Shown piece by piece: positions 17,669-19,247 of a stretch of 34,658 bases of DNA. Each line of letters begins with the position of its first letter. Position 1 is the stretch's first letter. Location: the NCBI RefSeq assembly GCF_014879935.1, contig NZ_JACSRD010000084.1, positions 1-34,658 on the forward strand, in the 5' to 3' direction. Below the pieces are notes generated by a model. That model saw only the letters and a program-made list of their open reading frames with translations, was not told the DNA's origin and did not search any database. The DNA comes from Prosthecobacter sp. GTDB lineage: Bacteria; Verrucomicrobiota; Verrucomicrobiia; Verrucomicrobiales; Verrucomicrobiaceae. Position numbers and translations under genes: made by a program.

Positions 17669-18289
17669 TCAAAGCATGCCCGGAGCGTACCGTGGACGCG
17701 CTTCCGAGCCTGTGGCGAGGCTTTCGCGCATCTTGGGATCGTCCAGGGCGCGATCCACGGCGTCCTGCAACGCTCGAGAAGTCAATTCACGAAGCACCGG
17801 CACGGGAGAGCCGCTTCCTGGCCGGTAAGCGCTGCTCTGGCGCTCGCCATCATACACCTTGGTGAAAACCACCGCCTTCGTCGCCGCGTCCAGCACGTTC
17901 ACACGGATGCGGGCATAGCCATAGGGGTGCACCAGCAGTTGGGAACGCAGGTCCTGAATGTCCCCCTTGATGATGAATCGCGCGCCCTTGTCTGGAGCCA
18001 GCATGCCACGTGCCTCCAGCGCATGAGCGAAGGCGTTTCTCACAATGTCACGAACCGGCAGCCGTGTCTGCACGGTATCGACCGTCGGCCCGACCGGCAG
18101 ACGCACATGCCCCAGCGTCTGCGCCTGCTGACCACGCTTGTCCTTGAACTCGCCCACCACGAAGTCCGGCGTGCCGCGCACCATCCGCCCCGGCACATAG
18201 TCCAGGCTGACAACAGAGGAGTTCGAGCAGGAGGAGAGGCCCAGGATGGCTGTGGCCGCAAAAATAACAGACGTGCACCGGAGGTTCAT
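17669..18289 (-). CDS. Putative lipoprotein (YajG/LptE-like size and layout)
   Basis: A 206-residue predicted lipoprotein. The ATG at 18289 opens a signal ending in the lipobox LSSC (ILGLSSCSNSS), so the mature protein would be lipidated at that Cys and probably face the periplasm. The body has alternating strands and helices: VRDIVRNAFAHALEARGM, then RFIIKGDIQDL and RIRVNVLDAATKAVVFTKVY. The arrangement (family of helices for multimer ends, then a beta-meander that describes a derived quantity) resembles YajG-type lipoproteins, but similarity is too weak to assign. The frame continues upstream without a stop to 18475, but only the 18289 start yields a signal. The leader between it and the divergent L,D-transpeptidase-like gene contains a terminator-like hairpin with an eight-base U-tract on this strand. 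Confidence 0.75.
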   Translation of the reverse strand: MNLRCTSVIFAATAILGLSSCSNSSVVSLDYVPGRMVRGTPDFVVGEFKDKRGQQAQTLGHVRLPVGPTVDTVQTRLPVRDIVRNAFAHALEARGMLAPDKGARFIIKGDIQDLRSQLLVHPYGYARIRVNVLDAATKAVVFTKVYDGERQSSAYRPGSGSPVPVLRELTSRALQDAVDRALDDPKMRESLATGSEARPRYAPGML

Positions 18290-18360
18290 GGAAGCGCCAT
18301 TTGTAGTACGCCTTGGCCTCGAATCAACGCGCGAGATTTCACTCCGAACCTCACGGAGAC

Positions 18361-18439
18361 AAAAAAAACAACCCTGCCGGCACTCGGAACTCAGGAAAAA
18401 AACCCCCAAAACCTGAATCCAATTAACCCGGCAGGGTTG
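18361..18439 (-). promoter_or_regulatory. Terminator-like hairpin in a divergent leader (possible attenuator)
   Basis: A perfect 12-bp inverted repeat, CAACCCTGCCGG at 18369-18380 and CCGGCAGGGTTG at 18428-18439, encloses 47 bases that can form a smaller inner stem (TCAGG/CCTGA). On the minus strand the outer stem is followed directly by eight T residues (complement of 18361-18368), the form of an intrinsic terminator. It lies about 70 bp upstream of the lipoprotein start, with no gene upstream to terminate, and within 35 bp of the divergent start at 18474. It could be an attenuator, an operator or a small palindromic insertion. Confidence 0.6.
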
Positions 18440-18473
18440 ATTAATTAAATTTATATTCGGAAAGTGGGGGATC

Positions 18474-19247
18474 ATGCAATCCCAAAAAATTTGCCATCAA
18501 AAAAAATGCCGCGCAGGCCTGTTTGCCGCAGCGATTTTTGCTCTGTTGCCCGCCACAGCGCTCCACGCACAGATCGGGCGTGGCGTGCGGCAGGTCATCG
18601 TCGCCCAAGCAGCGAACTGGAACTCGAACACCGCCACGCTGCAATGCTGGCAGCGTGCCTCCAGCCGCGACGTGTGGCATGCTGTCTTCGAAAAGCCGTT
18701 TCCCGTGCTGCTTGGCAAAAAAGGCCTCGCCTGGGGGCGAGGCGTGTTTCCGGTGCCACGCAATGGCATTCCCATGAAGGTGGAGAAAGACTGGAAGGCT
18801 CCCGCCGGAGTGTTTCAGCTCGGCAGCTTGTTCGGCTACGCTGCGACAGCGCCGGGCGGAGCCCGGTGGCCTTACATTCAGGTGGGGCCTTGGGACGCTT
18901 ATGTGGATGACTCAGGCTCTCCCTATTACAACCAGCACGTCCGCATCGATCCGAGGAAAGGTGTTCCACCGTGGTTTGAAAAGCAGCGCATGAGGCTCGG
19001 CGATGCCGCCTACAAGTGGATGCTCGAGATCCGGCACAATCAGCAACCGGCCGCGCCAGGCTACGGCAGCGCGATTTTCTTCCACGTGCGCCGGGGACCG
19101 GACAAGCCCAGCGCAGGCTGCACCACCATGGCAGAATCCGACCTCGTGCGTCTGCTCCGCTGGGTCGATCCCACCGCCTCACCACACTACGTCCTGCTGC
19201 CAAAGGGCGACTACTCCGCTCTTCGGGCCTCCTGGGGCCTGCCGTGA
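18474..19247 (+). CDS. L,D-transpeptidase (YkuD-like) family protein
   Basis: Predicted periplasmic enzyme of the YkuD fold, which forms 3-3 crosslinks in peptidoglycan or attaches proteins to it. The ATG at 18474 opens a basic region and hydrophobic signal (GLFAAAIFALLPATALHA), giving 257 residues. The catalytic signature is at the C-terminal end: AIFFHVRRGPDKPSAGCT, with the conserved His in FFHV and the nucleophile Cys216 in SAGC. The region before it (DWKAPAGVFQLGSLFGYA) matches the usual TPxG-type strand. The Ser-Ala-Gly-Cys variant replaces the common S(H/R)GC. Purine-rich sequence (GGAAAG/GGGGG) just upstream may serve as the ribosome-binding site. The SGNH esterase gene follows after 58 bp on the same strand. 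Confidence 0.8.
   Translation: MQSQKICHQKKCRAGLFAAAIFALLPATALHAQIGRGVRQVIVAQAANWNSNTATLQCWQRASSRDVWHAVFEKPFPVLLGKKGLAWGRGVFPVPRNGIPMKVEKDWKAPAGVFQLGSLFGYAATAPGGARWPYIQVGPWDAYVDDSGSPYYNQHVRIDPRKGVPPWFEKQRMRLGDAAYKWMLEIRHNQQPAAPGYGSAIFFHVRRGPDKPSAGCTTMAESDLVRLLRWVDPTASPHYVLLPKGDYSALRASWGLP

What the first reader, a model, noticed from the sequence alone, without database searches (positions are those of the whole stretch)
18361..18439. Terminator-shaped hairpin in a divergent leader
A perfect 12-bp stem followed by eight T on the minus strand stands between two divergent genes, where no upstream transcript needs termination. The inner 47 bases can form an alternative stem. This is the anatomy of an attenuator or unknown riboswitch for the lipoprotein gene, or of a protective barrier between divergent promoters.
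Basis: partly seen in the sequence, partly recalled or inferred. Interest (0 to 1): 0.55.

Follow-up and report, generated by a model that had tools for sequence, protein, structure and literature searches.

The report
New Verrucomicrobia small RNA gene
The hairpin looks like a complete small RNA gene, not a switch in front of the lipoprotein gene: a self-terminating RNA of about 80 bases with a nearly unchanging G- and U-rich loop, found in many members of one bacterial order and matching nothing in the RNA family library searched.

Summary
In detail: a 12-bp stem with a U8 tail lies on the minus strand at 18361-18439. The inner bases form a nested stem, not an alternative one. The leader/attenuator reading fails: the element stays divergent from an L,D-transpeptidase (YkuD) gene in 38 of 39 congeners, while in 7 of them the lipoprotein gene is on another contig; in other families the neighbours mostly differ. 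It has its own minus-strand promoter (TTGCAT-18-TATAAA; predicted start about 18443), so the hairpin is the whole RNA, an sRNA of about 80 nt. The stem covaries (21 of 23 pairs change on both sides across four families, on an alignment fitted to the structure), while the loop AGG-UUUU-GGGGG-UUUUUUU-CCU is exact in 36 of 41 congeneric copies. G-U versus A-C counts (65 to 8) mark the minus strand as the RNA. It matches 59 of 68 genomes of the family and 108 of 239 sampled from the order, with up to 11 matches per genome. Many copies outside the family carry a sigma-54-type site. No Rfam family matches. Function is inferred: most likely a trans-acting regulator working through its loop. I found no convincing excess of complementary sites and only one weak candidate target.

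The parts
18361..18443 (-). small RNA gene (predicted transcript about 80 nt)
   Evidence: conserved structure, promoter and U-tract; models R1, R2, R3 hit 18359-18443 minus
18428..18439 (-). outer stem, 5' arm of the RNA
   Evidence: in A4 all 12 outer pairs show at least one change on both sides
18369..18380 (-). outer stem, 3' arm of the RNA
18412..18422 (-). inner stem, 5' arm (UUGGAUUCAGG)
18384..18395 (-). inner stem, 3' arm (one bulge)
18396..18411 (-). apical loop UUUUGGGGGUUUUUUU; AGG-loop-CCU exact in 36 of 41 congeneric copies
18361..18368 (-). U8 tract of the intrinsic terminator
   Evidence: four or more T directly after the stem in 32 of 41 congeneric copies
18450..18455 (-). predicted -10 box TATAAA of the small RNA promoter
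   Evidence: read; TATA in 39 of 41 congeneric copies
18474..18479 (-). predicted -35 box TTGCAT, overlapping the YkuD start codon; 18-nt spacer
   Evidence: read; TTGC in 39 of 41 congeneric copies, spacer 18 nt in all 39
18474..19247 (+). divergent neighbour: L,D-transpeptidase (YkuD, PF03734)
   Evidence: beside the element in 38 of the 39 genomes where a DNA search found it
17669..18289 (-). gene downstream: putative lipoprotein (lipobox read by eye), not a constant partner
   Evidence: no Pfam match; adjacent in 33 of 41 loci, on another contig in 7 congeners

Best explanation
The feature is a stand-alone small RNA gene on the minus strand. RNA polymerase starts at about 18443 from a TTGCAT-18-TATAAA promoter, transcribes the two-part hairpin and stops at its U-tract, so the whole RNA of about 80 nt is one long stem crowned by the loop UUUUGGGGGUUUUUUU. 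Supported by sequence evidence: a conserved promoter, a covarying hairpin, a nearly invariant loop, the transcribed strand, independence from the lipoprotein gene, wide distribution and multiple copies. Inferred and not shown: that it is transcribed and ends there, and that it acts in trans through the loop. I judge base-pairing of the G/U loop with C- and A-rich RNA the most likely mode (about 0.4), ahead of capture of a protein or of ribosomal RNA (about 0.3). A role linked to the cell wall is a guess from the YkuD neighbour and one candidate target. The confidence given is for the small RNA gene, not for the mode of action.
For: Structure: unconstrained alignment A1 (41 copies of one genus, 34 distinct): 98.0% of 781 cells paired against 30-53% when the partner is slid. 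A4 (39 copies from four families, fitted to the model): 95.9% of 796 cells paired, 21 of 23 pairs changed on both sides, covariation score 0.494 against 0.219 shuffled. Strand: 65 G-U against 8 A-C cells in A1, 69 against 8 in A4. Promoter: TTGC and TATA, with an 18-nt spacer between the boxes, in 39 of 41 copies. Loop exact in 36 of 41 congeneric copies and in 16 of 17 from other genera of the family, allowing a 6-8 U run and one G before the closing CCU. Distribution: 59 of 68 family genomes, 10 of 11 genera; 108 of 239 sampled order genomes; 68 of 70 loop-pattern stretches in named genomes are titled as Verrucomicrobiota or its subgroups. Specificity: in 834,658 bases R3, which contains no sequence of this family, gives the window 46.3 bits and the next match 24.0; R2 gives 79.9, with 15.6 for the best match outside the element. 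Independence: synteny and differing neighbours.
Against: No expression data. Mode of action: an 11-base complement of the loop is not enriched (25 non-self sites in 10 genomes against 36 for the reversed control). 7-mers of the loop complement near gene starts number 35 against 26 reversed in G033 and 67 against 36 in G006; other controls in G006 give 42 and 50, and its upstream regions look A-rich, so I do not count this as proof. No Hfq was found. In A1 the number of pairs changed on both sides (4) and of further pair types (15) does not exceed shuffling (109 and 425 of 500 shuffles reach them). A4 and A6 counts lean towards the structure because those alignments were fitted to it. 9 of 41 copies lack four T directly after the stem. 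6 of 48 congeners had no model match. G028 and G042 copies are degenerate; the G004 copy lies away from YkuD and lacks the promoter. A DUF1549-type gene lies downstream on the same strand in three loci of two families (L176, L179, L197), so some downstream linkage outside the genus is not excluded.
Confidence: 0.85

Rival explanations
1. Attenuator or riboswitch in the leader of the lipoprotein gene: the hairpin ends transcription unless a ligand or factor remodels it.
For: The hairpin lies 71 nt upstream of the lipoprotein start on its coding strand and has terminator shape; the pair is adjacent in 33 of 41 congeneric loci.
Against: The lipoprotein gene is on another contig in 7 congeners while the hairpin stays; downstream genes in other families are mostly unrelated or opposite; the inner stem is nested, not exclusive; the predicted start leaves almost no RNA upstream of the hairpin that could hold an aptamer or anti-terminator.
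Confidence: 0.05
2. Plus-strand leader of the YkuD gene: the loop CCCCC pairs with the G-rich ribosome site and masks it.
For: In the window the YkuD ribosome region reads GTGGGGG; the element is a near-constant YkuD neighbour in the genus.
Against: A run of four or more G before the start codon is present in only 3 of 23 close relatives (L007, L025, L026) while the loop is kept; G-U pairs favour the minus strand 65 to 8; copies examined in other families do not adjoin YkuD.
Confidence: 0.03
3. Passive transcription barrier between two divergent promoters, or a DNA-level repeat or mobile element.
For: It is a stable hairpin between divergent genes; other families hold several copies, some close together.
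Against: The loop is kept while the stem covaries; a single locus with a conserved promoter in this genus; no further full copy in the own genome; no exact loop-pattern match in viral contigs.
Confidence: 0.04

Closest known systems
6C RNA of Actinobacteria (RF01066, recalled)
   Same: Conserved sRNA whose hairpin loops carry a homopolymer run (recalled).
   Different: 6C has two stem-loops with C-runs (recalled); this RNA is one hairpin with a G-run flanked by U-runs, and no Rfam family matches it. Of papers on 6C only a search listing with abstract openings was seen.
Qrr sRNAs of Vibrio and GlmY/GlmZ of enterobacteria
   Same: Sibling sRNAs with sigma-54 promoters (partly recalled; listing and abstract openings seen); relatives of the present RNA outside its family often carry -24/-12 sites and several copies.
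   Different: No match to any Rfam family; Qrr needs Hfq (recalled), and no Hfq was found in this genome; in the window's own family the promoter is sigma-70-like.
Transcription attenuators and riboswitch expression platforms
   Same: Terminator hairpin upstream of a gene.
   Different: No alternative fold, no room for an upstream aptamer, no constant downstream gene.

Membership tests
Any Rfam 15 family | covariance-model score above the curated gathering cut-off | tested here: not met
   0 matches for the window and for 16 loci with relatives; at E <= 10 only four weak matches of 12-15 bits, all below cut-off
Trans-acting intrinsic-terminator sRNA | own promoter and Rho-independent terminator, independent of neighbouring genes | tested here: met
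   by sequence only; transcription itself not measured
Trans-acting intrinsic-terminator sRNA | pairs with target mRNAs | tested here: inconclusive
   no convincing excess of complementary sites; one candidate 3' UTR
Trans-acting intrinsic-terminator sRNA | short stable transcript in vivo | not testable with these tools
   no expression data held
Riboswitch or attenuator leader | constant association with the regulated downstream gene | tested here: not met
   lipoprotein gene adjacent in 33 of 41 loci but on another contig in 7 congeners; varied downstream genes elsewhere
Riboswitch or attenuator leader | two mutually exclusive structures | tested here: not met
   inner stem nested inside the outer one in minimum-energy and centroid folds and in the consensus fold
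Hfq-dependent Qrr-like sRNA | Hfq present | tested here: not met
   PF17209 not found in the own genome while 5 of 14 controls ring; the assembly is 97.3% complete

The most novel reading that the evidence does not exclude
A class-wide family of minimal small RNAs in Verrucomicrobiota in which the whole molecule is a terminator hairpin and the letters that persist are a G-run/U-run loop. Copies multiply to 11 per genome and switch between sigma-70 and sigma-54 promoters, and they work without Hfq through a loop that captures a protein, ribosomal RNA or C-rich mRNA ends, in a mode not yet described.
Probability: 0.3. Interest if true: 0.8.

Novelty: new variant of a known kind. Interest (0 to 1): 0.62.

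Why it matters
In the listings I saw, no small RNA of Verrucomicrobiota stood out as described (15 of 28, 5 of 5, 1 of 1, 1 of 1 and 8 of 115 papers listed; no paper was opened). This element gives the phylum a conserved, often multi-copy sRNA family with precise coordinates, a predicted start and end, and a loop that can be mutated. It makes two questions testable: how small RNAs work in a bacterium without detectable Hfq, and why one loop stays fixed while the stem around it is free to change. The sigma-54-type sites outside the family suggest a regulated response.

Tried and rejected
Leader or attenuator for the lipoprotein gene: rejected by synteny. Plus-strand pseudoknot of loop CCCCC with the YkuD ribosome site: my own early idea, rejected because the G-run is not kept and wobble pairs favour the minus strand. 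Known RNA family: none. Mobile or phage element: no further full copy in the own genome and no exact loop-pattern match in viral contigs.

mRNA targets by loop complement: the 11-mer is not enriched (25 against 36). 7-mers: near starts 35 against 26 reversed (G033) and 67 against 36 (G006); after stops 12 against 21 and 40 against 30; in coding sequence 398 against 355 and 713 against 610; gene calls were crude. Of the 20 non-self 11-mer sites displayed (of 25), 4 lie by eye just before terminator-like hairpins (L317 and its orthologue L318, L324, L339); since A-tracts are common there I do not count this as evidence. The 3D-domain 3' UTR match (19 nt, BLAST E 0.02 and 0.013) is present in 8 of the 30 orthologues read (one of them with a mismatch; G035 keeps a part), so it is only a candidate. 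48 of 48 genomes had a match to that protein; I read the 30 with loci.

The first sigma-54 scan used too strict a pattern, found 4 sites in 105 upstream regions, and was replaced. The CM alignments A2 and A5 mixed in antisense matches and were not used; A3 was used only for reading. For A4 I gave 34 of the 53 loci and an E-value limit chosen to leave out antisense matches; for A6 the limit was chosen likewise.

Full report
OBSERVATION. The hairpin is real. On the minus strand CAACCCTGCCGG (18439-18428) pairs without a mismatch with 18380-18369 and is followed by eight T (18368-18361). Between the arms a second stem (18422-18412 with 18395-18384, one bulge) carries a 16-nt loop UUUUGGGGGUUUUUUU (18411-18396). 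Both stems form together in the minimum-energy and centroid structures (-37.9 kcal/mol, z -5.4, 0 of 200 shuffles as good). The inner stem therefore extends the hairpin and is not an alternative to it.

CONSERVATION. The window lies in G000, a 7.7-Mb genome. By matching contig lengths, several congeners are records titled Prosthecobacter, G007 is Brevifollis gellanilyticus, and two (G039, G040) are MAGs titled Akkermansia muciniphila. A DNA search finds the element in 39 of 48 genomes of the genus, the own included, at E <= 8.2e-12. In 22 close relatives identity to the window averages 0.93 over the element and 1.00 over the loop with its closing pairs, against 0.50 in the flank towards the lipoprotein gene, 0.63 in the spacer and 0.59 in the first 20 YkuD codons. 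In 18 more distant congeners the values are 0.80, 0.93, 0.27, 0.43 and 0.40, where the last stretch is not always YkuD coding sequence. A covariance model (R1) matches 59 of 68 genomes of the family and 10 of 11 genera: 42 of 48 in the genus, 17 of 20 in other genera. In a sample of the order 108 of 239 genomes match at E <= 0.01; the weakest are partial and may be chance. A loop-pattern scan of the species genomes returned 70 stretches, 68 titled as Verrucomicrobiota or its subgroups and 2 as Cyclobacterium.

STRUCTURE AND STRAND. In the unconstrained alignment A1 (41 copies, 34 distinct) 98.0% of 781 cells form standard pairs, against 30-53% when partners are slid. The number of pairs changed on both sides (4) and of further pair types (15) is no more than shuffling gives (109 and 425 of 500 shuffles reach them), but the changed cells (33 against 10.0), the share paired and the covariation score exceed all 500. 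In A4 (39 copies from families f1, f2, f3 and f5, fitted to the model, so leaning towards it) 21 of 23 pairs change on both sides, 158 cells against 43.5 shuffled. In A6 (22 copies from f2 and two families of other orders, also fitted) 15 of 21 pairs do, with 91.8% of 426 cells paired. Among cells that are not Watson-Crick, G-U on the minus strand occurs 65 times, A-C 8 times and others 8 times in A1; 69, 8 and 25 times in A4. The tolerated wobble pairs exist only if the minus strand is the RNA. The loop with its closing pairs, AGG-UUUU-GGGGG-UUUUUUU-CCU, is exact in 36 of 41 congeneric copies, and a form with 6-8 U is found in 16 of 17 copies of other genera of the family. In the order the loop reads AGG-UUU-(variable)-GGG(GG)-UUUUU-CCU with variations.

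PROMOTER AND INDEPENDENCE. Directly upstream on the minus strand 39 of 41 congeneric copies keep TTGC and TATA, with an 18-nt spacer between the two boxes in all 39. In the window these are TTGCAT (18479-18474, overlapping the YkuD start codon) and TATAAA (18455-18450), predicting a start at about 18443, at the foot of the hairpin. In the 39 genomes where the DNA search found the element, it lies beside YkuD in 38, the exception being G004; the 41 aligned loci were mostly fetched through YkuD, so they are not counted for this. In other genera of the family the divergent neighbour matched YkuD in 4 of 5 proteins tested, the fifth being cut by its contig end. The lipoprotein gene is adjacent in 33 of 41 loci but on a different contig, with no copy in the fetched flank, in G007, G016, G019, G027, G028, G036 and G046 (the element of G027 and G028 was found by the model, and of the other five also). 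In other families the neighbours tested are unrelated to either gene: a DUF1549/DUF1553 protein, MFS and PTR2 transporters, carbamoyl-phosphate synthase, a tRNA-modifying enzyme, an FGE-sulfatase-domain protein, Rho, a PEP hydrolase-like protein, and two without Pfam match. A DUF1549-type gene lies downstream on the same strand in three loci (L176, L179, L197), the one recurrent neighbour seen besides YkuD outside the genus. The G004 copy (L102) is near neither YkuD nor the lipoprotein gene and lacks the promoter.

A WIDER FAMILY. Model R2 matches 29 of 387 genomes sampled from the phylum at E <= 0.001. R3, which contains no sequence of the window's family, matches 52 of 384 sampled from the class at E <= 1e-4 and finds the window's element as the only match in G000; it was reached through R1 and R2, so it is not fully independent. 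G141 has 11 matches, G178 seven, of which I read four that lie within 1.7 kb. As a negative control, in 834,658 bases R2 scores the window 79.9 bits and the best match outside the element 15.6 (the element's antisense strand 28.6), and R3 scores 46.3 and 24.0. Phylum matches near 28-37 bits, often only about 40 nt long, are therefore doubtful. Outside the window's family many copies have a sigma-54-type site close to TGGCAC-N5-TTGCT (recalled consensus, at least 9 of 11): 10 of 12 in f3 (54-59 nt upstream, one at 97), 6 of 28 in f2, 0 of 4 in f5, 3 of 3 in other orders, 0 of 58 in f1 (expected from shuffles 0.05, 0.15, 0.03, 0.01, 0.26), and 9 of 23 in a second set (expected 0.19). Related copies are not independent events. 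The own genome encodes sigma-54 but its copy has a sigma-70-like promoter. Relatedness of the f19 and f21 copies, some of whose loops keep only the G-run, is less certain.

FUNCTION. Sequence evidence supports a short self-terminating RNA; expression is not shown. A conserved loop on a freely changing stem points to action through the loop. Complementary sites show no convincing excess: 25 non-self 11-mers against 36 reversed in 10 genomes; 7-mers near starts 35 against 26 in G033 and 67 against 36 in G006, the latter with other controls at 42 and 50. One candidate target is the 3' UTR of a 3D-domain gene, 19 nt complementary to the sRNA in the own genome. The predicted co-fold is -74.9 kcal/mol, only 4.9 better than the two RNAs alone (-38.0 and -32.0), and the site is present in 8 of 30 orthologues read. 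No Hfq was found. I put base pairing at about 0.4, protein or ribosomal RNA capture at about 0.3, and leave the rest open.

COMPARISON AND NOVELTY. No Rfam family matches the element or 16 loci with relatives. Literature searches for small or structured RNAs in Verrucomicrobia, Prosthecobacter and Akkermansia gave listings in which this RNA was not visible (15 of 28, 5 of 5, 1 of 1, 1 of 1 and 8 of 115 papers listed). I opened no paper, so an earlier description is not excluded. It works like other terminator-ended sRNAs with homopolymer loops (6C) or sigma-54 siblings (Qrr, GlmY/GlmZ), features partly recalled, but matched no known family in the tests made. I rate it a new variant of a known kind.

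Noticed in passing
G000:C24:53919-53937 (in L113) and orthologues: 3' UTR of a 3D-domain (PF06725) gene, between stop codon and terminator, carries CCCCCAAAACCTGAATCCA, complementary to the sRNA; present in 8 of 30 orthologues read.
   Followed up: partly
L196-L199, L201-L203, L211 (f3), upstream of the element: sigma-54-type site 54-59 nt upstream, a possible 5' hairpin (by eye), and a recurring GGGTTGAAAC linker that could pair with the terminator's 5' arm, so an alternative fold may exist there though not in the window.
   Followed up: partly
f2 copies, e.g. L209, L210, L291-L301, L309: Palindrome within 2 mismatches of TGTCGCGACA directly upstream of 16 of 28 copies; possible operator, no chance control run.
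   Followed up: no
L389-L401 (f19): Some genomes (e.g. G657, G646, G704, G760) hold two paralogue types: one with a sigma-54-type site and a G-run or G-rich loop, one with loop GGUUUCAUGGUUUUUCC or similar and without such a site.
   Followed up: partly
L102 (G004:C22:11712-11798): Element copy away from YkuD and the lipoprotein gene, without the promoter; probably relocated or decaying.
   Followed up: partly
L176, L179, L197: A DUF1549-type (PSCyt2) gene lies downstream of the element on the same strand in three loci of two families.
   Followed up: no
   Followed up: no
window 18475-17669 minus: The longest ATG frame for the lipoprotein runs through the hairpin to 18475; the lipobox argues for the start at 18289.
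   Followed up: partly
window 18743-18724 minus: A second terminator-like stem inside the YkuD gene, antisense.
   Followed up: no
G000, whole genome: No Hfq (PF17209) found in a 97.3% complete assembly.
   Followed up: partly
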